Assembly: GCF_000165485.1 (NCBI RefSeq)
Contig: NC_014623.1
Location: forward strand, 6,032,893 to 6,096,892
Source of the DNA: Stigmatella aurantiaca DW4/3-1
GTDB taxonomy: Bacteria > Myxococcota > Myxococcia > Myxococcales > Myxococcaceae
Length of the DNA: 64,000 bases
Direction: 5' to 3'
The first letter of the stretch is position 1; every line of letters starts with the position of its first letter. Position numbers and translations under genes: made by a program. A model generated the notes under the pieces. The model did not search any database, had not been told where the DNA came from, and was given only the letters and a program-made list of their open reading frames with translations. Of this stretch, positions 34,478 through 51,340 are shown piece after piece.

Positions 34478-37400
34478 ATGGCGGCGAGTGGAGGACGTCA
34501 ACGCAGCGTTGATGTGGTCATCCTGACGGCCATCACGCTGGAGTTTCAGGCGGTGCTCCAGGTGGAGGCCGGGGCCTGCGAGGGCAGCCGCTGGGAGCAG
34601 GAGCAGGGGCCCAACGGTCTGCCGGTCGCGTTCCGGGAGTTCAAGACCCAGCAAGGAAAACGGCCCATGCGCGTGGCCGTCACACAGGCTGGAGACATGG
34701 GGGCGGTCGCGGCGACCCATGCGCTGCTGCCCCTAACCATGCTCTATACACCCCGCTGCGTGGCGATGTGCGGTGTGTGCGCGGGCCGCCCTGGCAAGAC
34801 GAACCTCGGAGACATGGTCGCCGCCGAGCGTTTGTTCTTCCACGACACCGGCAAGCAACTGCCTGACCAGGTACAGCAGGATCTCAAGACATACAACCTG
34901 CGCGATGACTGGAAGGTAGCGCTCGAGCACTTCGACTTCGCTGCGCGCTTCCGGCAAGAGCCCTGGTGGCAACAGCGCCCCATTCCTTACGAGTGGCAGG
35001 AGAACTGGGTCCTGGCGAAGTTGCTGGAGAACGTCACCGATCCGTCCCAGCATCCCGAGTGCGAGCAGTTCTGCCCACGGTGGGACTTCGTCATCGAGTC
35101 GCTCTGGAAGTCGGACGACGTCCAGGATGGCACGCTTCTGCTCACCGAACAGGGCCGGAAGCGGATCGGCCGGGTGTTCATCAAGCATCGCAACCGTCTA
35201 CCCGATCTGTCTCCTGCGGGATCGGTGCTTCCCTTCAAGGTTCACGTCGCCCCCATGGGCAGCGGCAACCAGGTCGTCGAGGACCACACGGTGTGGAGCT
35301 TCGTGTCCGAGCACATGCGCAAGACCCTGGGTCTGGAGATGGAAGCCGTGGCGCTCGGCGCGCTGGCGCATGCGCAGCGGGAGCAGAAGCTCGATGCCTT
35401 GGTCCTCAAGGGCGTGATGGACTTCGCCAACCACGGGCGCGACGACCAGTTCAAGCAATACGCCGCCCGTGCCTCAGCGGAGTGCTTGCTGGCCTTCCTC
35501 CGAGAGACGCTGGACGTGGAGATCGTGCCCGGAACAGACGATCTCCTGGAATCAGGGACGGAGAAGTTGCCCGAGAACCCACCTCCCTCCGCCCTGCTCA
35601 ACGCGCGCTATCAGGTCGTCTCCTTTCACGAGCAGGGACGGGAGGCCATCCTCGCGGAGCTGACACGCTGGTGTGAAGAGGGTCCCGCAGTGGCGGTGCG
35701 GCTGCTGCACGCGGAAGGGGGCGCGGGCAAGACCCGGCTCGCCATCGAAGCCGTGCGGCGTCAGGGCCTGAAGGATTGGTCCACCGGTTTCCTACCCAAG
35801 CAGGTGCCCGAGGATTGGCTCGAGCGCTTGTGGAAACGAGGGCGGCCCACGCTGGTGGTCATCGACTATGCCGAGAGCCGTCCAGACCTGAGCTTGGTCC
35901 TGCAGCGACTGGTCCGCTACCGCCAACAGGAAGGCGTGGGGTCGATGCGCCGGATGCGTCTGCTGCTCCTGGCGCGCAACGCCGAGGACTGGTGGCAGTC
36001 ATTACGAGACAAGACGGAGCTGAGCACGTGGCTGGATGAAACAATGCCCTACGAGCTTCCTTCCCTGACTCCACTCAAGACAGAGCGAGAGAGGGTATTT
36101 CAGGAGGCCGTGGCGGAGTTCGCCCTGCGGCGCAAGGTGAACGAAAAGCCGCGAGGTGATCTCCTGCTCCTGGACGAACGGTTCGAGCGGGTGCTCTATC
36201 TGCACATGGCCGCACTCGCATGGGTGGAGGGCCTTGCGTTTGATGCGGCCACCTTGATGAAAGTGATCCTCGACCACGAGGAGCACTTCTGGGAAACGCA
36301 GGCTCCCCCGTCGGATACGGCACTCTCTCTGCGGAAGTCCTTGGCGCGTCAGGTGGTGGCCGCCGCCACTCTTCGTGGAGGAATGGAGGACTTCTCCACG
36401 GCCGCGCGCATCGTGACAAAGCTGTTGCCGCGATCCTTCAACGAGAAGGATCAAGAACTGCTCCACCTGCTGCACCGCATCTACCAGCGGAAGGGTCCGA
36501 AAGCGTCCATGTATCTCCCCGCCTTGGAGCCCGACCTCCTGGGCGAAGCCATGGTGCTTCGGGTCGCCTCGCCTGAACGCGAAGAGGACCGGGTAGCCCC
36601 AGACTGGATTGACCGGGTGCTGCCCTCGGATGAAGAAGAGCGGATCGTGGGCACCGGACTGGAGGTACTCGGCCGTGCATCCGCCGCGCATCCTGAGGCA
36701 GGGCGACGCTGGCTGGAGAGACTCCTGACGAACCCCTTGCGGCCGCGTGCGCGCCTGGCCTTGGTGGCCGCAAAGAACGTGGGAATGCACACGGCGTTCT
36801 CTCCGCTGGGAGAGATCCTGGCCGAGCGGCTTCGCGCGGTCAGTGATATCGAGTTAGCCCGTGAACTCGCGACCGTAGGAGTTCCTCAATCCACAGTGTC
36901 ACTGGGAGAGGTCGACGTCTGGATACTGACCACCCTTCTACAAGAATCTGGGTCAGCGATTGGAGAGGCCTCGGAGAGAACAAGAGCGTCGCTTCTCAAC
37001 AAGCTGGGCAACAGGTTGGGCGCCCTGGGACGGCCAGCGGAGGCCCTGGAAGCCACCCGCGAGGCGGTTGGACTCCATCGTGAGTTGGCCCAGCGCAACC
37101 CCGATGCGTTCCGGCCTGCCCTCGCCGGCAGCCTCAACAACCTGGGCAACAGGTTGGGTACCCTGGGACGGCCAGAGGAGGCCCTGGAAGCCACCCACGA
37201 GGCGGTTGGACTCCATCGTGAGTTGGCCCAGCGCAACCCCGATGCATTCCGGCCTGACCTCGCCGTCAGCCTCAACAACCTAGGCAACTGGTTGAGCGAC
37301 CTGGGATGGCCAGAGGAGGCCCTGGAGGCCACCCGCGAGGCGGTTGGACTCCATCGTGAGTTGGCCCAGCGCAACCCCGATGCATTCCGGCCTGACCTCG

Positions 37401-38053
37401 CCGGCAGCCTCAACAACCTGGGCAACAGTTTGAGCGCCCTAGGATTGCGATGGCCAGAGGAGGCCCTGGAGGCCACCCGCGAGGCGGTTGGACTTTATCG
37501 TGAGTTGGCCCAGCGCAACCCCGATGCATTCCAGCCTGACCTCGCCGGCAGCCTCCACAACCTAGGCAACCGGTTGAGAGATGTGGTACGGCCAGAGGAG
37601 GCCCTGGAGGCCACCCGCGAGGCGGTTGGACTCCATCGTGAGTTGGCCCAGCGCAACCCCAACGCGTTCCGGCCTGACCTCGCCGGCAGCCTCAGCAACC
37701 TGGGCAACTGGTTGAGCGCCCTGGGAGGGCCAGCGGAGGCCCTGGAGGCCACCCGCGAGGCGGTTGGACTTTATCGTGAGTTGGCCCAGCGCAACCCCGA
37801 TGCATTCCAGCCTGACCTCGCCGTCAGTCTCAGCAACCTGGGCAGCAGTTTGAGCACCCTGGGACGGCCAGCGGAGGCCCTGGAGGCCACCCGCGAGGCG
37901 GTTGGACTTTATCGTGAGTTGGCCCAGCGCAACCCCGATGCATTCCGGCCTGACCTCGCCAAAAGCCTCCGCAACTTGGCCGCCAGGTTGGGCGCCCTGG
38001 GACGGCCAGCGGAGGCCCTGGAGGCCACCCGCGAGGCGGTTGAGAACTCCTAA
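34478..38053 (+). CDS. NLR-like STAND protein: PNP nucleosidase domain - P-loop ATPase - TPR array
   Basis: A 1191-residue protein. Residues 9-345 are a purine-nucleoside-phosphorylase/MTAN-like (PNP_UDP_1) domain. It has VVILTAITLEFQAVL at the start, MCGVCAGRPGKTNLGDMV, the ribose-binding pair M288-E289 in LEMEAVAL and the catalytic-type D315 in LKGVMDFANH. A linker leads to a STAND/NACHT-like ATPase with Walker A EGGAGKT (K418) and Walker B LVVIDYAE (D463), then a helical region (about 540-840). The C-terminus (843-1191) is eight TPR units. In related immune proteins the PNP domain is an effector that cleaves ATP or a nucleotide, the STAND module oligomerises, and the repeats sense a trigger. 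This gene is likely a single-protein antiphage or self/non-self system (inference). It lies directly beside an insertion-sequence pile-up. Confidence 0.88.
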   Translation: MAASGGRQRSVDVVILTAITLEFQAVLQVEAGACEGSRWEQEQGPNGLPVAFREFKTQQGKRPMRVAVTQAGDMGAVAATHALLPLTMLYTPRCVAMCGVCAGRPGKTNLGDMVAAERLFFHDTGKQLPDQVQQDLKTYNLRDDWKVALEHFDFAARFRQEPWWQQRPIPYEWQENWVLAKLLENVTDPSQHPECEQFCPRWDFVIESLWKSDDVQDGTLLLTEQGRKRIGRVFIKHRNRLPDLSPAGSVLPFKVHVAPMGSGNQVVEDHTVWSFVSEHMRKTLGLEMEAVALGALAHAQREQKLDALVLKGVMDFANHGRDDQFKQYAARASAECLLAFLRETLDVEIVPGTDDLLESGTEKLPENPPPSALLNARYQVVSFHEQGREAILAELTRWCEEGPAVAVRLLHAEGGAGKTRLAIEAVRRQGLKDWSTGFLPKQVPEDWLERLWKRGRPTLVVIDYAESRPDLSLVLQRLVRYRQQEGVGSMRRMRLLLLARNAEDWWQSLRDKTELSTWLDETMPYELPSLTPLKTERERVFQEAVAEFALRRKVNEKPRGDLLLLDERFERVLYLHMAALAWVEGLAFDAATLMKVILDHEEHFWETQAPPSDTALSLRKSLARQVVAAATLRGGMEDFSTAARIVTKLLPRSFNEKDQELLHLLHRIYQRKGPKASMYLPALEPDLLGEAMVLRVASPEREEDRVAPDWIDRVLPSDEEERIVGTGLEVLGRASAAHPEAGRRWLERLLTNPLRPRARLALVAAKNVGMHTAFSPLGEILAERLRAVSDIELARELATVGVPQSTVSLGEVDVWILTTLLQESGSAIGEASERTRASLLNKLGNRLGALGRPAEALEATREAVGLHRELAQRNPDAFRPALAGSLNNLGNRLGTLGRPEEALEATHEAVGLHRELAQRNPDAFRPDLAVSLNNLGNWLSDLGWPEEALEATREAVGLHRELAQRNPDAFRPDLAGSLNNLGNSLSALGLRWPEEALEATREAVGLYRELAQRNPDAFQPDLAGSLHNLGNRLRDVVRPEEALEATREAVGLHRELAQRNPNAFRPDLAGSLSNLGNWLSALGGPAEALEATREAVGLYRELAQRNPDAFQPDLAVSLSNLGSSLSTLGRPAEALEATREAVGLYRELAQRNPDAFRPDLAKSLRNLAARLGALGRPAEALEATREAVENS
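37004..38050 (+). repeat. Coding tandem repeat: seven 138-bp TPR units plus a partial eighth
   Basis: Unit of 46 residues, beginning LGNRLGALGRPAEALEATRE and continuing through GLHRELAQRNPDAFRPDLA. Copies begin at 37004, 37142, 37280 and so on, with one 6-bp insertion (near 37445) in the fourth. The partial eighth (37976-38050) ends EAVENS and stop. Whole stretches such as ttggcccagcgcaacccc are identical in every full copy, which points to recent amplification or gene conversion. Confidence 0.92.
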
Positions 38054-42353: not shown

Positions 42354-45323
42354 ATGCATCCACCTGTGGAGAAGATCGCCATCCTCGGAGGAGGCATGGC
42401 CTCGCTCTCAGCCGCCTTCGCGCTCACCCACTCCCCTGCACTTCGCGAACGCTATGAGATCACCGTCTACCAGGACGGGTGGCTGCTCGGCGGCAAGGGG
42501 GCGAGCGTCCGCAACCGGGAGGCGCATGGCCGCATCGAGGAGCATGGCCTTCACGTCTGGCTCGGGTATTACGAGAATGCCTTCACGCTGCTGCGCCGCT
42601 GCTACGAGGAACTGGGCCGTCCTCCCGGCGCCGCGATGCGCACGCTGCGGGACGCCTTCATCAAGCATGGCGCCATCGCCGTCGGAGAGCAGACGGCGCG
42701 CGGGTGGGAGCACTGGAGCGTCTCCTTCCCCGAGACGGACGAATGGCCGGGTGAAGGGCGGCCGTTGCCCAGCATCACGGAGTCCATCCGCGCCGCGGCG
42801 TTGCAGGTGCTCCGGTACGCCCTCGTCTGGTGGAAACAGCGGCAGGGCGTCCGGCCTGAATTCGACGGCGTGGCCCAGCAACTCCGCGGCCTGCTCAAGC
42901 GCATGCTTTCACCGCGAAGCTCCCAGCCCGGTGGCATCCCGGCACGAGAACTCGCCGACGGCCTCTCGTCGCTGCTCGATCGGCTCCGGGCCCTGGCCCG
43001 AGGCGACTTCGAGGCCGACGCCCACCTGCGCCGGATGTGGATCGTCCTCGAGTTCGGCGCGATCACCGTGATTGGCATTCTGCGCGACGGCCTCCATGGG
43101 CCCAGCGCCAACTTCGAGGCGCTCGACGAGGTGGAGTACTGCGATTGGCTCCGCAAGCACGGGGCCTCCGAACGCATGGTATCGAGCGGGCTGATCCGCG
43201 CCTTCTACCACCTCGCCTTCTGCGACGGTGCCGGGGCTGGCGCGGGACTCGCCATTCTCGGAATGCTGCGCATGTTCACGTGCTACCGCGGTGCCATCTT
43301 CTACAAGATGCGCGCGGGCATGGGCGAGACCGTCTTCGCGCCCCTGTACGAGGTGCTTCGGCGGCGCGGCGTCCGATTCGAGTTCTTCCACCGGGTGCAA
43401 CGGCTCGAACTCTCCACCGATCAGGCGCGCATCGAACGCGTCGTCATCGGACGGCAGGCGACCCCCCGTTCTGGCGAGTATCAACCCCTCATCGATGTGG
43501 GTGGGCTGCCGTGCTGGCCCGAACAGCCGCTCTACAACCAGCTTGTCGAGGGCGAGGCGCTCGCCCGTCACGGCGCGGCGCTCGCTTCTTTTTGGAGCCA
43601 ATGGCCTCCCGTCGAGCAACGCACGCTGCACCTGGGCACGGACTTCCATCGTGTCTTGCTGGGGATCTCCGCGGGGGCGCTCCCCTTCATCGCCTCCGAA
43701 CTCATCGCGGCGAGCCCTCGCTGGCAACACATGGTCAAGAACGTCCAGACGGTCCGCACGGTGTCCCTCCAGCTCTGGGTGAACGCGCCCATCGGACCGC
43801 TCGCCACGAGCGTGGACGCGCCCGTCACGACCGCCTACCAGGTGCCGCTCGAGACCTGGGCGGACATGTCGCACCTCATCCCGATCGAGGGCTGGAAGAA
43901 GTCCAGCGGCGTCCAAGGCATCCTCTATGCCTGCGGCCAACTCGGCCACGGCAGCGATCCCGTCTCGGAGAGCGATCCTCGCGCCTACGACCGCGCCGCA
44001 CTGGAGGAGACCGCTCGCCGCTTCCTCCAAGAGCACCTCTCGCACATCTGGCCGGGCGGCGCGGATGCTCGCGGTGGCTTGCAGTGGGAGAGGCTCTTCG
44101 ATCCGCAAGGGCGCACCGGACCCGAGCGCCTTCGCGCCCAATACCTGCGTGTCAACGCGGACCCTTCGGATCGCTACGTGCTGTCAGTGCCAGGCTCGCA
44201 GAAGCACCGCATCGCGCCCGATGCGTCAGGGTTCGAGAATCTCGTGCTGGCGGGCGACTGGACCCGGACCGGTTACGATCTCGGCTGCATCGAGGCGGCG
44301 GTGATGTCCGGCCTGATGGCGGCGCGAGCGCTCGGTGCACCGGTCTCCATCATTGGCGAGGTTCCGCGGCGGCACATCGAGCCCAGAATCACACTGCCTC
44401 GCTACGTCGACCGTCCTGGCGAGATGTCACTGCGCTCGCCTTACGTGATGGAAGACGTCTGGATGACCGCGCTCGTGTTACAGGCCCAGCAGGCCTCCCT
44501 CGGGGCGCTGCTCGACAAGTACTTGAACGCTCCCGCCCGAGGGCACGTCCGATACGTGCCAGCAGCGCCCTTCGTCGTGCTCGCCGCTGCTTTTTCTGGG
44601 CGCTCCTTCTCCGGCGACCCCGAGCATCGGCGCCTCGGCTACATGCCCGAAACGGATGTGGCCTTCTGGGTCCCGGCCTGGGCCATGCGCTCCGGCAAGG
44701 GAGGGCTGATCCCCGAGCGGCTGGTCTGGTTCCTGCCGCACGTCTTCGTTTCGACCGGCGCCGCAGCAGCCGCAGGAAGGGAGATCTACGGCTTCCCCAA
44801 GAGTGTGGTGGGTGTCCAGATGAGCCGCTCGGGACAGGCGCTGGATCACCTCTCGGTGGAGGGCGAAGTCCTCGCCCAACACACCCCCGAGACCTGCGGC
44901 ACGAGGGCGCGCATCCTGGAGGTGACACGGCGCGAGGGGGGGACGGGTGCGCCGAGCTCCATTGCTGAGCTGCTCGGCGGTATCACCCGGCCACTCGATG
45001 CTTCTGGAGCATGGGCGTCATCGCTCGCGAACAAGTTCGCCGTGAGCGAAGTCACCATCGCCTTCTTGAAGCAGTTCCGCGACGTTCAGCACACCGAGCG
45101 CGCCTGCTATCAAGCCATCATCGAGGCCAAGGCCACCGTGCGGACCCTGCGTGGGCAGGGTCCCATTCCTGGCACCTTCCATGTGAGCTGGGGCGATTAC
45201 GCGAGCCACCCCTTCGCAGCCGATCTGGGCCTCCAACCTGGAGGGCAGCAGGCCCTGGCGGCCATCTGGGCCGACTTTGATTTCGTCATGGAGTCTGGAC
45301 GCGAGATCTTCCGTGCCAGCTGA
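42354..45323 (+). CDS. Fusion: FAD-dependent amine-oxidase-like protein + acetoacetate-decarboxylase-like domain
   Basis: A 989-residue protein. The N-terminal 690 residues form an FAD oxidoreductase: dinucleotide motif IAILGGGMASLSAAF, the carotenoid-desaturase/amine-oxidase-like GGKGAS and RIEEHGLHVWLGYYENAF, and the C-terminal FAD block LVLAGDWTRTGYDLGCIEAA. The last 275 residues look like the acetoacetate decarboxylase superfamily (GYMPETDVAFWVPAW and GREIYGFPKSVVGVQM). The Lys in FPK aligns with the Schiff-base Lys of the family, but the next residue is Ser instead of the usual second Lys that lowers its pKa. So the domain may catalyse a different Schiff-base reaction. A biosynthetic two-step enzyme is plausible. 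The substrate is unknown. Confidence 0.82.
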   Translation: MHPPVEKIAILGGGMASLSAAFALTHSPALRERYEITVYQDGWLLGGKGASVRNREAHGRIEEHGLHVWLGYYENAFTLLRRCYEELGRPPGAAMRTLRDAFIKHGAIAVGEQTARGWEHWSVSFPETDEWPGEGRPLPSITESIRAAALQVLRYALVWWKQRQGVRPEFDGVAQQLRGLLKRMLSPRSSQPGGIPARELADGLSSLLDRLRALARGDFEADAHLRRMWIVLEFGAITVIGILRDGLHGPSANFEALDEVEYCDWLRKHGASERMVSSGLIRAFYHLAFCDGAGAGAGLAILGMLRMFTCYRGAIFYKMRAGMGETVFAPLYEVLRRRGVRFEFFHRVQRLELSTDQARIERVVIGRQATPRSGEYQPLIDVGGLPCWPEQPLYNQLVEGEALARHGAALASFWSQWPPVEQRTLHLGTDFHRVLLGISAGALPFIASELIAASPRWQHMVKNVQTVRTVSLQLWVNAPIGPLATSVDAPVTTAYQVPLETWADMSHLIPIEGWKKSSGVQGILYACGQLGHGSDPVSESDPRAYDRAALEETARRFLQEHLSHIWPGGADARGGLQWERLFDPQGRTGPERLRAQYLRVNADPSDRYVLSVPGSQKHRIAPDASGFENLVLAGDWTRTGYDLGCIEAAVMSGLMAARALGAPVSIIGEVPRRHIEPRITLPRYVDRPGEMSLRSPYVMEDVWMTALVLQAQQASLGALLDKYLNAPARGHVRYVPAAPFVVLAAAFSGRSFSGDPEHRRLGYMPETDVAFWVPAWAMRSGKGGLIPERLVWFLPHVFVSTGAAAAAGREIYGFPKSVVGVQMSRSGQALDHLSVEGEVLAQHTPETCGTRARILEVTRREGGTGAPSSIAELLGGITRPLDASGAWASSLANKFAVSEVTIAFLKQFRDVQHTERACYQAIIEAKATVRTLRGQGPIPGTFHVSWGDYASHPFAADLGLQPGGQQALAAIWADFDFVMESGREIFRAS

Positions 45324-45334
45324 CCCAGCGGGCC

Positions 45335-47137
45335 CTACGGGGAGCAGGTGGCCCAGGTCGCGAGGGCCGCGCGGATGGGCTCGCGCAGCGGTTCGACCTT
45401 GGCGCTATTGAAGGTGTTGCTCGCCGCGGTCGCGTTGCTGGCGCCTTGGATGAAGATGCCCCACACGTAACGCTGGTTCGTCACCAGGCCGCTGGTGCAC
45501 CGCGGAACCTCGGCCGAGCCCGCCACGGACAGATACTCGAGGCACCCCCCATTGCACAGGGTATAGCCCCCTGCCTTGTAGTGGGTGATCAGGCGGCTCT
45601 TGTATTGGCCAATCTCTTGAGCGCTCAGACTGAAGCCCGCCGCCTCCTGATCCACCAACGTCATCAGCTTGCTGCGGATGCCCGTGAAATCGCCCGCCAG
45701 CTCTGGCATGCGCTGGTAAAGCGCGGTGCGGCTGGAGGCCGTCAACAGGCTGCCATTGGCGATGCCCTCGTACATCACTCCGGCGTCGTCCAGCGTGAGC
45801 GCGTTCGCCACGGGGCCGCCACAACCGGGGTAGTGGTTGAGGCGCGTGGAGGCCATGCCCACGGTGAGCGCCGTCTGGTTGATGGCGGTGAACCCAAACG
45901 CATTGATGACTGCTTTGGTGCGCTGGTTATCGGAGAACTCCAGCATCTGGTAGATGGCGTTCCCCAGCGTCTCCGTGCCCGTGATGGTATTGGAGGGGCA
46001 ACTGCTGTTCGCCGTCGGCGCGTAGAGATTGACGAGCTGATTCAAGGTGGCACGGCCCGCGTCCACCTCGCGCATGGCGTGCAAGGCAATGAGCGCCTTG
46101 ATGCTGCTTGCGGGTTCGAAGACGAAACCCTCCTGGAGGCCTGCCTGCACGGAGCCCCCCACCTGCTTCAAGTAGTGGCCCGTGACGCCGTCCGTCCCAT
46201 CCCGCATCAGCTCGCCAATGCGCGTGGTGGCCGCGTTCGAGTTGTTGACCAGGATGGCCGCGAACTTGCGCACACCCCCCGAGGTGTACGTCTTCACATC
46301 CAGCAGCCGTGCCCCATTCTGGCTCAGGCGAGCACTGAGCTGCGAGGCCGTCACGCCGTAGTACCACCACCAGGCGACGCCCGGGCTTTGCTCCATGATG
46401 ACGTTGAACGTGGAGCCGCTGGCGTCCGCGGGCTCGATGCTCGTCAGGAACGCCTGGTTCTGCGACAGGGCCGTGGAGAGCTGGCTGCCAGTGATGCCGT
46501 AGTACCACCACCACCCCTTCGCGTCGGCTCCCGTGTTGGACACCATCACCGCCACGTAGCGGGTGCCAGCGCTGGTGTCATAGCTGCGCAAGTCCACCAG
46601 CCGCGCGCTGTTCTGCGTCAGGTAGGTCGAGAGCTGCGCCGGGGTGACACCGGAGTACCACCACCAGCCCTTCGCATCGGCCCCTGTATTGGGGATCATC
46701 ACCGCCGCGAAATACGTCTGGCCACTCACCTCGTAGGCATCCAGGCTGATGAGGCGCGCCCCCTGGGTGCTGAGCACCGAGGAAAGTTGGCTGCTGGTCA
46801 ATCCGACGTACCACCACCAGCCCTTGGCATGGCTGCCCGTGTTCTTGACGGTGGCCACGGTGAGCCGCAACGGCGAGGCCTGCTCCACTTGCAAGCTGAC
46901 GATGCGCGCTCCGTTATCGCTGACCAGGGCGGAGACCTGATCAACCGTCTGGCCATAGGCCCACCACCAGGCCGTGGGGGTGGTGTTCAGCGCCTCACCG
47001 AGGGCCGCGTCCTTCCGTTGGGCCCACTCATTTTCTGAGAGGGCCTCGGTGCCCTCGGAGGGGCCACCACAAGCGGCGAAAAAAAGGACGCTGAAGCAGG
47101 TCAATGCGGCGAGCCGCCGCGAGCACAAGGATGACAT
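45335..47137 (-). CDS. Secreted serine hydrolase: BTRD-like repeats + beta-lactamase-fold domain
   Basis: A 600-residue protein. The ATG at 47137 has GGAGG 5 nt upstream. The lipoprotein signal ends VLFFAAC. About residues 50-300 hold five copies of a roughly 47-residue repeat with W-W-W-x-Y-G-x-T-x-x-Q-L-S and ARL, the pattern of bacterial tandem repeat domain 1 known from polyglycine hydrolases. The C-terminal domain is a class-A beta-lactamase-like serine hydrolase with S344-S-I-K347 in FEPASSIKAL and S402-D-N404 in EFSDNQRTKA. A close match to KTG was not found. By analogy it may cleave Gly-rich peptides or peptidoglycan bridges, perhaps of prey (inference). Confidence 0.82.
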   Translation of the reverse strand: MSSLCSRRLAALTCFSVLFFAACGGPSEGTEALSENEWAQRKDAALGEALNTTPTAWWWAYGQTVDQVSALVSDNGARIVSLQVEQASPLRLTVATVKNTGSHAKGWWWYVGLTSSQLSSVLSTQGARLISLDAYEVSGQTYFAAVMIPNTGADAKGWWWYSGVTPAQLSTYLTQNSARLVDLRSYDTSAGTRYVAVMVSNTGADAKGWWWYYGITGSQLSTALSQNQAFLTSIEPADASGSTFNVIMEQSPGVAWWWYYGVTASQLSARLSQNGARLLDVKTYTSGGVRKFAAILVNNSNAATTRIGELMRDGTDGVTGHYLKQVGGSVQAGLQEGFVFEPASSIKALIALHAMREVDAGRATLNQLVNLYAPTANSSCPSNTITGTETLGNAIYQMLEFSDNQRTKAVINAFGFTAINQTALTVGMASTRLNHYPGCGGPVANALTLDDAGVMYEGIANGSLLTASSRTALYQRMPELAGDFTGIRSKLMTLVDQEAAGFSLSAQEIGQYKSRLITHYKAGGYTLCNGGCLEYLSVAGSAEVPRCTSGLVTNQRYVWGIFIQGASNATAASNTFNSAKVEPLREPIRAALATWATCSP

Positions 47138-47316
47138 GAGAACCTCCGGCCAGAGCGAATTCCTGCGGTGTAGACGCAGGGGGCTCCACAAGAGCGTCCT
47201 GATGACGCTCCGCTGGATGAAACGAAGCCCGCCTGGATTTCCCCTCAGGACTGCTCGTTATACGGAGCGCGCGCCATATCTTCCCGGAGAGCGAGTCTTT
47301 TCCGGGAAAACAGCCG

Positions 47317-47664
47317 CTAAGGCGTGGAACGCCCATCCGTACCCGGTGCCTTCGTCATGCCAAGAACCCAATCGAGGTAGGCGCGATGACCTGCTTCCGG
47401 CCGGAGCGCGAGCATTTCGGGGACTTCGTAGGGATGCAGGGCCAGCAGACGTTCCCGCACCTGCTCGAACAATTCCGAGCGCGTCTTCAGCATCAGCAGG
47501 CATTCCGGTTCATCCTGCACCTGTCCCTGCCACCGGTAGATGGAACGGATGGCAGGCAGAATGTTGCCGCATGCCACCCACGTCTCCTCCACCAGTGTAC
47601 GGGCGATGGTGCTGGCCACCTCCGCGGTGGGGCACGTGACGAGCACCAGAATCACGTCAGTCAT
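47317..47664 (-). CDS. cutA: Divalent-cation tolerance protein CutA
   Basis: A 115-residue protein matching CutA1 throughout: VLVTCPTAEVASTIARTLVEE, ACGNILPAIRSIYRWQG, ECLLMLKTR and LHPYEVPEMLAL. CutA forms very stable trimers with a ferredoxin-like fold. It is linked to copper tolerance in E. coli, but its exact role is unclear. The start has AAGG upstream. The 179-bp gap to the gene on its left holds nothing I recognise. Confidence 0.95.
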   Translation of the reverse strand: MTDVILVLVTCPTAEVASTIARTLVEETWVACGNILPAIRSIYRWQGQVQDEPECLLMLKTRSELFEQVRERLLALHPYEVPEMLALRPEAGHRAYLDWVLGMTKAPGTDGRSTP

Positions 47665-47733
47665 GTCGAGCCTTGTTCATTCGAGGTACGGGGCGTCACC
47701 CTACTGTAGGACGCCCAAAAGAATGCCATTCCC

Positions 47734-49071
47734 ATGGCGAACGTCCGTGTGAACTCTGCTAAGCCCAGGGGCATGGAACGCGTCCTCGGACCCACCGAGC
47801 AGGTCTTCTACAAGGTGCGGCAACTGCGCCCCTTCAACGTCGTGATCACCGCCCGGGTCTCGGGCCAGGTGACCGAGACCCGGGTCCGCGAGGCGCTTCC
47901 GGTCGTACGGCACAGACACCCTCTGCTCCAAGCAAACATCCTCGCGGAGTCCCCTCCCCGCTTCTCCCGCAGCACTGTGCCCGAAATGCCCCTCGAGGTC
48001 GTACCGCGCGAGCACGCGGACTCCTGGCTCGAGCAGGTGAACAAGCAGATCAACCTGCCCTTCGACGCCACCCAAGGCCCTCTGGCTCGGTTTGTCCTTG
48101 TGCAGGGTGAAAACCACTCAGAGCTGATCTGCGGGTATGACCACCTCATTGGCGATGCGCTGTCGGGCTGTTTCGCCTTGAGGGACCTGCTTCGCGCCAT
48201 GGCGCCCAGTGGCGGGCGTCCGCCGGAGCTCCCCGCGCGGCCCGCCTACGAGGCCCTGATCGGGCCTCCGCTGCCAGGGACCCACGTGCTGAACAAGGTG
48301 GTCTCCCGGACCTCGTCCACGCTCCTGCGCGTGTCCCCGGCGCTCAACCGGCTCTCCGCCCGGCTCAGCGCCTCGTCCACGCCGCCGCCCCCCGCCGACA
48401 AGGTGCGCTCGGGCTTTGTCTACCGCCGCCTGGTCCCAGAGCAGACCGAGCGGCTGCTGGCCCTCTGCCGTGAACAGGGCTCCTCCCTGCATGGACTCCT
48501 GGGCGCCGCGCTGACACTGGCGAGGGCCGAGACGTTGTCCTCGGACAAGGCCTCCGTCATCACCCTCACCTCCGCCCTGGACGCCCGGGAGCGCTTCGAG
48601 GTGGGCGAGGACTTCGGCCTGTTCACCACCGGCAAGACGCACCTCTTGCGCATCCGCAAGCAAGAGGAGGTCTGGGGCCTGTCACGCAAGCTCCGTGCGC
48701 CCCTCGTCGCCGCGCGCAAGAGTGCGACGCACTTGAAGCTGTTCCGCTCGGCCATCGAGATGTCCTCGCGCACGGTGGACCTGGCGGCCCAGCCCTGGAT
48801 GCAACGCGCCACCCAGCTGGGACTGGACTCCATGCTCGGATTGACCAACCTCGGCCGTCTGAACCTGGACGCCCGGTATGGCGACCTGGGCCTGGAGGGC
48901 ATCAACTTCTCGGGGTCGGTGGCGTCCCACTTCGACATTGTCCTGGCGGCGGCGACCTTCGCCCAGCGCATGGACATCAGCTTCCTCTACAACCCTCCTC
49001 TGATGGCCCCTGAGCTGGCGGAGCGCATCGCCTCCCGCACCTGTGAGGTGCTCGCCGAGGCGGCGCGCTAG
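47734..49071 (+). CDS. Condensation-domain-type acyltransferase (PapA5/alcohol acetyltransferase-like)
   Basis: A 445-residue protein. It has the chloramphenicol-acetyltransferase/condensation fold pattern, with the active-site motif D-H-L-I-G-D (GYDHLIGDALSG, about residue 132), that is HxxxD with the first His of HHxxxD replaced by Asp. It also shows VVRHRHPLLQANI near the N-terminus, as in PapA5 and related acyltransferases. It transfers an acyl group to an alcohol or amine. An in-frame ATG at 47773 (MERVLGPTEQ) matches the usual family start and may be the real one. The next genes, on the other strand, are OCD- and Coq4-like, which suggests a small biosynthetic locus. Confidence 0.78.
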   Translation: MANVRVNSAKPRGMERVLGPTEQVFYKVRQLRPFNVVITARVSGQVTETRVREALPVVRHRHPLLQANILAESPPRFSRSTVPEMPLEVVPREHADSWLEQVNKQINLPFDATQGPLARFVLVQGENHSELICGYDHLIGDALSGCFALRDLLRAMAPSGGRPPELPARPAYEALIGPPLPGTHVLNKVVSRTSSTLLRVSPALNRLSARLSASSTPPPPADKVRSGFVYRRLVPEQTERLLALCREQGSSLHGLLGAALTLARAETLSSDKASVITLTSALDARERFEVGEDFGLFTTGKTHLLRIRKQEEVWGLSRKLRAPLVAARKSATHLKLFRSAIEMSSRTVDLAAQPWMQRATQLGLDSMLGLTNLGRLNLDARYGDLGLEGINFSGSVASHFDIVLAAATFAQRMDISFLYNPPLMAPELAERIASRTCEVLAEAAR

Positions 49072-49076
49072 CCGCC

Positions 49077-49736
49077 TCACTCCGCCTGGATGTTGTACAT
49101 CCGCCGCACATCCTCCAGCGGCATCTCCATGACCTTCCAAGGGTCCCAGTCACCGAACAGATCCACCGTCACGGCGCTGCCCCGGTCCAAGGCTCGCTGA
49201 AGGCGGGGAATGGGAATGAGCCGGGCCAGCATGCGCACGGGAATGACGATCTTGTGCCGTGCGGGATCGTAGTTGCGCGCCTTGGGGTTGAACATGAAGC
49301 CGAGGCTGAACGTGGTGGTGAGCATCTCTTCCCAGATGCTCACCCCATATCCAGACAGCAGGTGGACGAAGTCGTGCACCGCGGAGTGCACCGGCAAGGC
49401 GTGCGGGTGCCCCGGCATGGGAATGCCCCGCTCCTGGCAATATTTCCAGAACTCATGTCCGAAGGTGCCCTCGGGCAGGGTGGCCAGACGCTGGAAGCGC
49501 TGGGCCAAGTCTGGCTCCTCGTAGCGCTCGCGCAGCGTGTCATAGAGCTTCCAGTACCAGTCGCCCTTGGGCAGGCGCAGCAGGGTACCGAAATAGTCGA
49601 TGTAGGCCGCGGCCAGAAAGCCTTGCAGGCCAAAAGCCAACCACAGCTTGGAGCGGGCCTCATCCGAGAGCGAGCGCTCACGGACCGCCGCGCCGGGTTG
49701 AGCCTTGTGGATGAACGCGTCAGTTACGATTCGCAT
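49077..49736 (-). CDS. Coq4-like protein
   Basis: A 219-residue protein. It has PEGTFGHEFWKYCQERGIP and the metal motif HDFVHLLSGYGVSIWEE, which is the H-D-x-x-H-x11-E signature of Coq4. Coq4 binds zinc and acts in ubiquinone synthesis, organising the complex and, by recent work, oxidatively decarboxylating C1 of the ring. No other ubiquinone genes are nearby. It overlaps the end of the ornithine-cyclodeaminase-like gene by 13 nt, so the two are coupled and may serve a specialised pathway rather than quinone synthesis. Confidence 0.78.
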   Translation of the reverse strand: MRIVTDAFIHKAQPGAAVRERSLSDEARSKLWLAFGLQGFLAAAYIDYFGTLLRLPKGDWYWKLYDTLRERYEEPDLAQRFQRLATLPEGTFGHEFWKYCQERGIPMPGHPHALPVHSAVHDFVHLLSGYGVSIWEEMLTTTFSLGFMFNPKARNYDPARHKIVIPVRMLARLIPIPRLQRALDRGSAVTVDLFGDWDPWKVMEMPLEDVRRMYNIQAE

Positions 49737-50827
49737 GCGGACACCTGAGGGGGAGCGTCAATTCGAATGGCTTCCGGGAGCAGACCTTCCGGGCGAAGAA
49801 AGCTGTACGGGTCGCGCGGATCATCCGCCAGGGACTCCAACTGAAACGTCCGGCCAATGCCCAAGCTCTGCGCGTGTTCCAACAGCACCTCGAGCACGAC
49901 CTGGTCCTCCAGGGCGAACCCCGTGGAGTCGAACACCGTGGGGCGGCCGTGGTACTGCCGCCCCTGCGTGGGGTCACGGGCCAGCTCGAAGAGGGTGGGG
50001 CCAATGTCTCCGGGCTGCAGTTGCTGGCATTCGCCTTCCACCAACGCCTGGGGCAAGTAATCCGGACAGACAACGGCACGCCGCAGGAACTCGAGGGGCA
50101 GCTCGGTCTTTCCCGGCAGATCCGAGCCCACGGCGTTGATGTGGACGTGGGACTTGAGCCGCGTGCCGGAGAGGACCGGTCCCGCCCCCACTTCCACGGA
50201 GGTGGCGGTGCAGAGGATGTCCGCCTCGCGCTCCACGTCTTCCAGGCGGACAGCTTCCACTTCCAGGCCCAGGAAATCCACGCGCCGGGCAAAGCCACGC
50301 GCGGTCTCGGGACGCCGGTCGTAGACGAGCACCCGCTTGAGGGGAAAGAGGCGGGAGAGGGCATGGGCCTGGGTCACCGCCTGGGCCCCGCAGCCCACCA
50401 GTCCCAACACCTCGCTGTCCGGACGGGCCAGCAGCCGGCTCGCCACGGCCGAGGCCGCGCCGGTGCGCAGGGCCGTGGGAAAGGTCCCGTCGCACAGGGC
50501 GCGCAGGTGCCCGGTGTTCACATCATAGAGGCTGATGGACGAAAGAATGGTGGGCAGCCCCAACCCCTCCACATTGGCCGGGTTGTAGCCCACCAGCTTG
50601 ACCACCACCTGGCGGCCGACCTTCATCACCGGCATCCACTCGAGCACGCCCGGGTGGGGGTGCTGGTACTGGAAGCCATCGCGCTTGCGCAGCTCCGTGT
50701 GCGAGGGGTCGAACTCCGTCACCGTGCGCCCCAGCGCGGCGATCGTCTCGTCCATCAGGGCGTGCAAGCCCACGATGCCCACGAGCCGCCGCAGCTCCTG
50801 TTCTCCCAGGACCCTCGTGCTCAACAT
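49724..50827 (-). CDS. Ornithine cyclodeaminase/mu-crystallin family protein
   Basis: About 367 residues from the ATG at 50827 (GAGG 9 nt upstream; an alternative ATG is at 50836). It has the family's FRDG-like region, LCDGTFPTALRTGAASAVASRLLA, the Rossmann motif LGLVGCGAQAVTQAHAL and HINAVGSDLPGKTELP. The family includes ornithine cyclodeaminase, alanine and lysine cyclising enzymes, and imine reductases. In biosynthetic loci it often makes proline or pipecolate from ornithine or lysine. It is coupled to the downstream Coq4-like gene. Confidence 0.88.
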   Translation of the reverse strand: MLSTRVLGEQELRRLVGIVGLHALMDETIAALGRTVTEFDPSHTELRKRDGFQYQHPHPGVLEWMPVMKVGRQVVVKLVGYNPANVEGLGLPTILSSISLYDVNTGHLRALCDGTFPTALRTGAASAVASRLLARPDSEVLGLVGCGAQAVTQAHALSRLFPLKRVLVYDRRPETARGFARRVDFLGLEVEAVRLEDVEREADILCTATSVEVGAGPVLSGTRLKSHVHINAVGSDLPGKTELPLEFLRRAVVCPDYLPQALVEGECQQLQPGDIGPTLFELARDPTQGRQYHGRPTVFDSTGFALEDQVVLEVLLEHAQSLGIGRTFQLESLADDPRDPYSFLRPEGLLPEAIRIDAPPQVSACES

Positions 50828-50872
50828 GACTGCCATCCTCGCGCAGGAAGTGTGGGGTGTTGAGACGTCGTC

Positions 50873-51340
50873 TCAGGGGCGTGCGAAATCGACCTTCAGC
50901 GTCCCCTTCTCCAGGACGGCATCCACGGCCTGAAGCGGTACGACCGAGCGGGGCAGCATGATGTGCCGCCGGAAGCTGCCCACGCGGACGATGAGGTCAT
51001 CGCCCTGACGGTCGAGGACGATCTCCTCGCGGCCCGCGCCCGGCATGCGGATGCTCAACCCGTAGCGTCCCCCCGGCTTCTTGGTGAACTGGTAGGGCGG
51101 CGCGGTGACATACCGCCCGGTGGGGTCTTTGCCCTGGAAGAGCTTGTCGGCCAGCGCTCCCAACCGCTCCTGGCCCACGACCTCCTGCTCGAACAGGGGC
51201 AGCCGGGCCACGGGAAGTGGCTCGAAGTAGTCCTGGATCTGCTCGACGTAGGCATTCTGCGCCAGGTTCCACTGCTCCAGGTGCTTGGTGGCGGGCAGGA
51301 TGCGGTTGACCACGACCTGGTCCACCGTCATGCCGTACAT
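50873..51340 (-). pseudogene. 5'-truncated ArsA-family ATPase (C-terminal half only)
   Basis: A 155-residue open frame beginning YGMTVDQVVVNRILP, which normally lies in the second half of an ArsA-type ATPase. The end has the small HSP20-like domain of bacterial ArsA paralogues (RMPGAGREEIVLDRQGDDLIVRVG then RRHIMLPRSVVPLQAV). The P-loop and switch regions are absent, and a stop lies a few codons upstream. Just beyond 51340 begins the PKS fragment, so a rearrangement cut the gene. A GGAGAGGGG lies upstream of the ATG, so a fragment might still be made. Confidence 0.75.

What the first reader, a model, noticed from the sequence alone, without database searches (positions are those of the whole stretch)
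42354..45323. FAD oxidoreductase fused to an acetoacetate-decarboxylase-like domain with an altered active site
The FAD part resembles carotenoid-desaturase/amine-oxidase proteins. The C-terminal part has the ADC-like FPK Lys but Ser in place of the second Lys. Two-step chemistry (oxidation, then Schiff-base catalysis) on one polypeptide is rare and suggests a specialised metabolite pathway.
Basis: partly seen in the sequence, partly recalled or inferred. Interest (0 to 1): 0.55.

Follow-up and report, generated by a model that had tools for sequence, protein, structure and literature searches.

The report
Desaturase-like flavoenzyme fused to decarboxylase-like domain
A myxobacterial protein joins a carotenoid-desaturase-like flavin enzyme to a lysine-catalysed decarboxylase-like domain; relatives of the two parts have been joined or placed side by side several times in evolution, which points to an uncharacterised two-step pathway, probably on isoprenoid-type lipids.

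Summary
ORF 42354-45323 (989 aa) is a real fusion: five other genomes carry it unbroken at 78-94% identity, with dN/dS 0.13-0.24 in both halves. The N-terminal half is an uncharacterised flavoprotein family related to HpnE and plant-type phytoene/zeta-carotene desaturases. The C-terminal half is acetoacetate-decarboxylase-like (ADC): weak by itself, clear by profile (hhalign E 2.5e-8). Its Schiff-base Lys (K816) is invariant in 17 of 17 subfamily members. The 'altered' Ser is ordinary: Lys follows in 0 of those 17 and 0 of 10 other myxobacterial ADC proteins. The pairing recurs: 17 of 17 strong hits of this ADC subfamily in 195 genomes of the phylum are fused or adjacent to the flavoprotein gene, with several separate fusions (one reversed, one with another ADC subfamily); four of four cyclic-nucleotide-binding-ADC genes also neighbour such flavoproteins; ten of ten other ADC loci do not. 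Some sister flavoprotein loci carry an isoprenyl diphosphate synthase. Best reading: a two-step lipid/isoprenoid enzyme (flavin oxidation, then lysine-imine chemistry); substrate and reaction are not shown. Many sister loci, but none of the six of the window's type, neighbour giant kinase/cyclase-AAA proteins. Both structure predictions failed.

The parts
42354..45323 (+). whole fusion gene, 989 aa + stop
   Evidence: orthologues in 5 other genomes
42354..44333 (+). FAD module, residues 1-660: HpnE / phytoene desaturase / zeta-carotene desaturase-like flavoprotein
42387..42395 (+). GGG (residues 12-14) of the dinucleotide-binding motif
   Evidence: each in 37-38 of 39 family members
42540..42572 (+). 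EHGLHVWLGYY (residues 63-73), shared in part with plant-type desaturase 5mog; E63, G65, H67, G71, Y73 in 39 of 39, H64 in 38 of 39
44334..44423 (+). linker, residues about 661-690, identity 70-83% to the orthologues
44424..45320 (+). ADC-like module, residues about 691-989
44655..44657 (+). acidic residue D768 (Glu in 9, Asp in 8 of 17)
44799..44801 (+). K816, predicted Schiff-base lysine in GREIYGFPKS, invariant 17 of 17
45069..45116 (+). subfamily motif KQFRD...ACYQA (K906, Q907, A917, Y919, Q920, A921 invariant 17 of 17)

Best explanation
The protein is a two-step enzyme. The flavin half oxidises (dehydrogenates, or isomerises at) an allylic position of a long unsaturated, probably isoprenoid, lipid, as its desaturase/HpnE relatives act on such chains. 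The ADC-like half then works on the product's carbonyl through an imine on K816, with D768 as acid/base, either decarboxylating a beta-keto acid or moving a double bond or cleaving by retro-aldol chemistry. Joining the halves passes a poorly soluble intermediate from one site to the other. Shown: both families, conservation of the catalytic Lys, repeated fusion and adjacency. Inferred: isoprenoid substrate (isoprenyl diphosphate synthase and geranylgeranyl-reductase-like neighbours of sister genes; homology). Guessed: the exact reaction, the role of D768 and the hand-over of product.
For: All 17 strong hits (E<1e-100) of this ADC subfamily in 195 genomes of the phylum (15 genomes) are fused or adjacent to an FAD-family gene (coordinates); those 15 genomes all lie among the 22 of 195 with an FAD-family hit at E<=1e-30. 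Fusions include the window type (6 genomes), G007 and G080 FAD-ADC (32% and 23% identical to the window's ADC half), G058 in reversed ADC-FAD order, and Qingshengfaniella, whose ADC half is of another subfamily; the tree of 39 FAD sequences forces at least 4 gains/losses of fusion. In Azospirillum the two are separate overlapping genes near a second FAD paralogue and a FadL-type outer-membrane protein; in Catenovulum they are adjacent. Four of four cNMP-binding-ADC genes sit beside HpnE-like or FAD-family genes. Control: 10 of 10 other ADC loci of the group, 7-8 kb each side, hold no FAD-family or HpnE-like gene by the same search that finds them in 8 of 8 known pairs. Isoprenyl diphosphate synthase near the FAD gene in 6 loci of one sister set; geranylgeranyl-reductase-like gene at G046.
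Against: No structure: both predictions failed (pLDDT 36 and 31). No substrate or pathway genes conserved beside the window gene or its orthologues. The isoprenoid clue is from 6 of 25 non-window-type FAD loci, which have no ADC gene, and 0 of 6 window-type loci, and from one gene at G046 that scores under its model's cut-off (120 against 158.8 bits) and lies beside a different FAD subfamily. FadL in Azospirillum fits fatty acids as well as isoprenoids. The C-terminal part of the ADC module beyond about column 153 of 328 was not aligned to known ADC.
Confidence: 0.5

Rival explanations
1. A fatty-acid / oxylipin enzyme: the flavin half isomerises or desaturates a long-chain fatty acid and the ADC half isomerises the resulting enone, working like CLA-HY and CLA-DC of Lactiplantibacillus plantarum.
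For: CLA-DC is an ADC-family protein that isomerises an oxo-fatty acid (PMC11719350, passages); FadL-type protein beside the Azospirillum pair; weak MCRA match of the FAD half (E 0.0026, under cut-off); patatin-like phospholipase about 3 kb from the Rufibacter FAD gene.
Against: The FAD half is much closer to HpnE/desaturases (E 2.6e-19) than to oleate hydratase (E 0.22); one set of sister loci carries isoprenyl diphosphate synthase.
Confidence: 0.25
2. A signalling part: the flavoprotein/ADC pair makes or senses a lipid cue for giant kinase- or cyclase-AAA proteins.
For: AAA_16 giants within 5 kb in 14 of the 25 non-window-type FAD loci fetched with flanks, where about 3% is expected per locus from 20 such genes in the 10.26-Mb window genome and 0 of 10 control ADC loci have one; cNMP-binding-ADC fusions; Crp-type regulator and cyclase-AAA protein beside the Qingshengfaniella fusion.
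Against: 0 of 6 window-type loci have such a neighbour within what was held (6 kb or more each side); many of the 25 loci are orthologous, so the count is not of independent events; some FAD loci (for example G047, G005 C348, G053 C93, the second gene of G068) were not fetched with flanks.
Confidence: 0.15
3. The ADC half is a non-catalytic binding or scaffold domain.
For: Second Lys missing; weak single-sequence match to Pfam ADC.
Against: K816 and an acidic residue at 768 kept in 17 of 17, at identities to the window domain down to 20%; dN/dS as low as in the FAD half.
Confidence: 0.1

Closest known systems
HpnE hydroxysqualene dehydroxylase (TIGR03467) and plant-type phytoene / zeta-carotene desaturases (TIGR02731, TIGR02732; PDB 5mog)
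   Same: FAD-binding fold by profile and the GLH..G.Y region; best named models and best PDB match (E 4.1e-11 for the family profile)
   Different: scores far below equivalog cut-offs (69.9 against 283 bits for HpnE); longer, with two extra stretches of about 100 aa against 5mog (spacing of the matched segments)
Acetoacetate decarboxylase superfamily (PF06314; PDB 4zbo/6eej, 3c8w, 3bgt)
   Same: GRE..GFPK Schiff-base lysine region and N-terminal part by profile
   Different: Ser for the second Lys; about 300 aa with its own KQF..ACYQA motif; below the Pfam cut-off by itself
CLA-DC and CLA-HY of Lactiplantibacillus plantarum
   Same: an ADC-family protein and another enzyme acting in one lipid pathway (PMC11719350, passages); that CLA-HY is an FAD protein of the oleate-hydratase family is recalled
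   Different: separate proteins; the hydratase belongs to another family; sequences not compared here
Limonene dehydrogenase CtmAB / steroid delta-24 desaturase
   Same: paired FAD paralogues acting on allylic positions of isoprenoids (PMC4109377, PMC11061730, passages); paired FAD genes also occur in sister clusters here
   Different: their covalent-flavin His motif is absent from 39 of 39 FAD-family sequences

Membership tests
Acetoacetate decarboxylase superfamily | profile-level similarity to ADC | tested here: met
   the single window sequence is under the Pfam cut-off
Acetoacetate decarboxylase superfamily | Schiff-base lysine | tested here: met
   K816, 17 of 17
Classical acetoacetate decarboxylase (enzyme) | Lys directly after the Schiff-base Lys, as in the PDB members | tested here: not met
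   Ser; Lys in 0 of 17 relatives and 0 of 10 other myxobacterial ADC proteins, against 5 of 5 PDB members aligned
Classical acetoacetate decarboxylase (enzyme) | decarboxylates acetoacetate | not testable with these tools
   needs an assay
ADC fold | three-dimensional fold | tested here: inconclusive
   AlphaFold2 gave pLDDT 36 (whole protein) and 31 (ADC half); sequence evidence only
HpnE / phytoene desaturase / zeta-carotene desaturase (equivalogs) | score over the curated cut-off | tested here: not met
   69.9, 47.7 and 53.8 bits against 283, 569 and 622
Amine-oxidase/desaturase-type flavoprotein superfamily | NAD_binding_8 and Amino_oxidase matches over cut-off | tested here: met
   34.3 and 29.2 bits against 21.9 and 19.8
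Limonene dehydrogenase CtmAB type | covalent-flavin motif G-F-[LR]-x-[NS]-[TL]-H-A | tested here: not met
   0 of 39; motif read in PMC11061730

The most novel reading that the evidence does not exclude
An undescribed family of lipid/isoprenoid-modifying flavoprotein + ADC-type imine enzymes, found fused, adjacent, or with the ADC part carrying a cyclic-nucleotide-binding domain, that works under the control of giant STAND-like kinase/cyclase proteins, so that a terpenoid-derived molecule is made or read as a signal; the window fusion is a stand-alone, streamlined form of that module.
Probability: 0.25. Interest if true: 0.75.

Novelty: new variant of a known kind. Interest (0 to 1): 0.5.

Why it matters
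The recurrent joining of an HpnE/desaturase-like flavoenzyme with an ADC-like domain predicts an unknown reaction sequence on one substrate. The natural fusion offers a single construct in which both steps could be assayed, and sister loci suggest a link between isoprenoid chemistry and cyclic-nucleotide/kinase signalling.

Tried and rejected
Frame artefact: rejected (orthologues; dN/dS). CtmAB-type covalent flavoprotein: rejected by motif. Rufibacter neighbour as ADC: rejected (alignment, no Pfam or NCBIfam hit). A conserved operon around the window gene: not found; by protein clustering in the DNA held, neighbours are shared only within pairs of genomes (G000/G036, G053/G068, one DUF1801 gene in L001/L041); Pfam was run on 10 neighbour proteins from three of the five orthologous loci and 10 from the window. 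Structure prediction of the whole protein (1 sequence) and of the ADC half (3 sequences) gave meaningless models, so no fold search was run. Ten paper searches showed no paper on an FAD-ADC fusion in the rows listed; lists were cut and the library lacks most subscription journals, so this is not proof that none exists. Rows dropped: of 21 ADC-type sequences aligned, alignment A1 kept 17 (left out: the Rufibacter protein, which is not ADC; the Qingshengfaniella ADC half and two F4 proteins, which are ADC of other subfamilies and keep the Lys). Six of the 17 are near-identical window-type orthologues. That the second lysine of Clostridium ADC may not be what lowers the catalytic pKa is recalled, from no call.

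Full report
What is there. The window lies in a 10.26-Mb single-contig genome. Its close relatives include Archangium and Pyxidicoccus, so the phylum searched is taken to be Myxococcota (inference). The ORF 42354-45323 encodes 989 aa. Residues 1-660 are a flavoprotein: NAD_binding_8 and Amino_oxidase in Pfam, and HpnE, zeta-carotene desaturase and phytoene desaturase as the best named models, all far under their cut-offs. The best PDB match of the family profile is plant phytoene desaturase 5mog (E 4.1e-11). Across 39 family members (several of them close orthologues) E63, G65, H67, G71 and Y73 are invariant and H64 is kept in 38.

The C-terminal half. By itself it matches Pfam ADC weakly. A family alignment of 17 (A1) does better: 16 of 17 members match Pfam ADC at E<=0.01; of six PDB matches at E<=1 the first four (E 0.004-0.01) and the fifth (0.25) are acetoacetate decarboxylases and the sixth (0.31) is unrelated; hhalign against 10 other ADC proteins gives probability 95.2 and E 2.5e-8 over columns 13-153. 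K816 is invariant (17 of 17), residue 768 is always Asp or Glu, and a subfamily motif KQF..ACYQA follows. The residue after K816 is Ser, Gln, Gly, Tyr or Glu in the 17 and never Lys; in the 10 other ADC proteins it is His, Gln, Val, Phe or Arg, never Lys. The five PDB members aligned have Lys there. The fold itself could not be tested: both predictions had pLDDT under 40.

The fusion is real. Five further genomes hold the same fusion at 78-94% identity. dN/dS against them is 0.16-0.24 for the FAD part, 0.16-0.33 for the 30-residue linker and 0.13-0.19 for the ADC part.

The pairing recurs. In 96 genomes of the family the ADC half finds 15 genomes; with profile A1 over 195 genomes of the phylum the same 15 are strong (17 loci, E<1e-100) and four more are weak (E 1e-8 to 6e-6) (only the best candidates per genome are scored there). 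The FAD half is found at E<=1e-30 in 22 of 195, and all 15 are among them (hypergeometric 1.7e-17, ignoring kinship). All 17 loci are fused or adjacent to an FAD-family gene (coordinates). Besides the window type, G007 and G080 carry FAD-ADC fusions, G058 the reversed ADC-FAD order, and Qingshengfaniella an FAD protein with an ADC half of another subfamily. On a tree of 39 FAD sequences the well-supported branches force at least 4 changes of the label 'fusion' (several long branches, so placements of single rows are unsure). The window genome also holds a separate cluster at 5.56-5.58 Mb with ADC, FAD, FAD, a second more canonical ADC-family gene and a kinase-AAA giant. Azospirillum plasmids (two of eight records viewed) have FAD and ADC overlapping, then a FadL-type protein and a second FAD gene; Catenovulum has ADC then FAD.

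A third ADC group, and a control. The four weak genomes (G046, G052, G113, G150) carry cyclic-nucleotide-binding + ADC proteins (Pfam on two of the four; the other two by 39-42% identity across both domains). All four sit beside flavoproteins: in G150 beside the tandem FAD-family pair, in the other three directly before an HpnE-like gene (HpnE model E 2.6e-28 to 4.3e-35, under cut-off; the G052 gene runs off its contig). At G046 a geranylgeranyl-reductase-like gene precedes them (under cut-off). As a control I fetched about 7-8 kb on each side of the ten other ADC loci (that call found 13; the remaining three are G080, G150 and G052, already counted as paired): 0 of 10 show an FAD-family, HpnE-like or AAA_16 match at E<=1e-5, while the same search finds flavoproteins in 8 of 8 known paired loci.

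Substrate clues. In six loci of one sister set (L078, L079, L083-L086; FAD without ADC) the FAD gene is followed by an unknown protein of about 260-270 aa and an isoprenyl diphosphate synthase (Pfam on two of the six; the rest by 76-80% identity). None of the other 19 non-window-type loci or the six window-type loci searched has it. This and the desaturase/HpnE kinship favour an isoprenoid; FadL in Azospirillum fits any hydrophobic substrate.

Signalling neighbours. Giant proteins with kinase or cyclase and AAA_16 domains lie within 5 kb of the FAD genes in 14 of the 25 non-window-type loci fetched with flanks, by a strict match; three more of the 25 (L039, L042, L043) have a member of the same loose protein cluster next to the FAD gene and L078 has one with a weaker AAA match. 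By my grouping of orthologous loci the strict count is 9 of 16 lineages. The window genome has 20 AAA_16 matches (18, two more), so about 3% is expected per locus under random placement (the binomial values there treat loci as independent, which they are not, and the density is from one genome). Against this, 0 of 6 window-type loci have one in the DNA held. In G053 and G068 the fusion lies about 19 kb from a second FAD gene, which in G053 is next to such a giant (the G068 neighbourhood was not fetched).

Mechanism and rivals. The best-supported reading is two linked steps on one lipid: flavin oxidation at an allylic position, then imine chemistry on K816. CLA-DC shows that an ADC-family protein can isomerise an oxo-lipid (PMC11719350, passages), and MppR, of the same superfamily, is reported to act as an aldolase (PMC7820114, passages), so decarboxylation should not be assumed. 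A fatty-acid substrate, a signalling role and a non-catalytic ADC half are rivals. No tool here can name the reaction.

Verdict. Confirmed observation, interpretation partly supported; a new domain combination of known kinds, recurrent enough to be functional, with unknown chemistry.

Noticed in passing
window 34478-38053: 1191-aa protein with a nucleoside-phosphorylase-like region and many TPRs; a relative lies on the same side of the fusion in sister genome G036 (L032 3-3425). Looks like a STAND-type conflict protein (recalled, not tested).
   Followed up: partly
window 47317-51340: Block with CutA1, a PapA/condensation-like acyltransferase, a weak Coq4-like and an ornithine-cyclodeaminase-like gene that is absent between the same flanking gene families in sister genome G036 (L032).
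   Followed up: no
L102 1072-2406; L105 772-2058; L082 10672-11916; L127 8379-9578: Cyclic-nucleotide-binding domain fused to an ADC-like domain, 4 of 193 genomes of the phylum, each beside an HpnE-like or FAD-family gene.
   Followed up: partly
L083, L084, L085, L086, L078, L079: Conserved cluster: FAD-family protein, isoprenyl diphosphate synthase, unknown proteins of about 260-270 and 206 aa, and a kinase-cyclase-AAA-TPR giant.
   Followed up: partly
L031 598-19150 and L033, L038, L039, L042, L043: Conserved cluster of two FAD paralogues, two ADC-family genes, kinase-receiver-cyclase protein, metallo-beta-lactamase-fold protein and double ATP-grasp protein (Pfam on L039/L031 members).
   Followed up: partly
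L074 3382-12148: Rufibacter plasmid: FAD-family gene beside a 1706-aa kinase-AAA-GAF-cyclase protein (by similarity) and an unknown 317-aa protein that is not ADC-like.
   Followed up: partly
window 45335-47191: Serine-hydrolase (beta-lactamase-like) protein with a polyglycine-hydrolase-type structural repeat match, conserved beside the fusion in G036.
   Followed up: no
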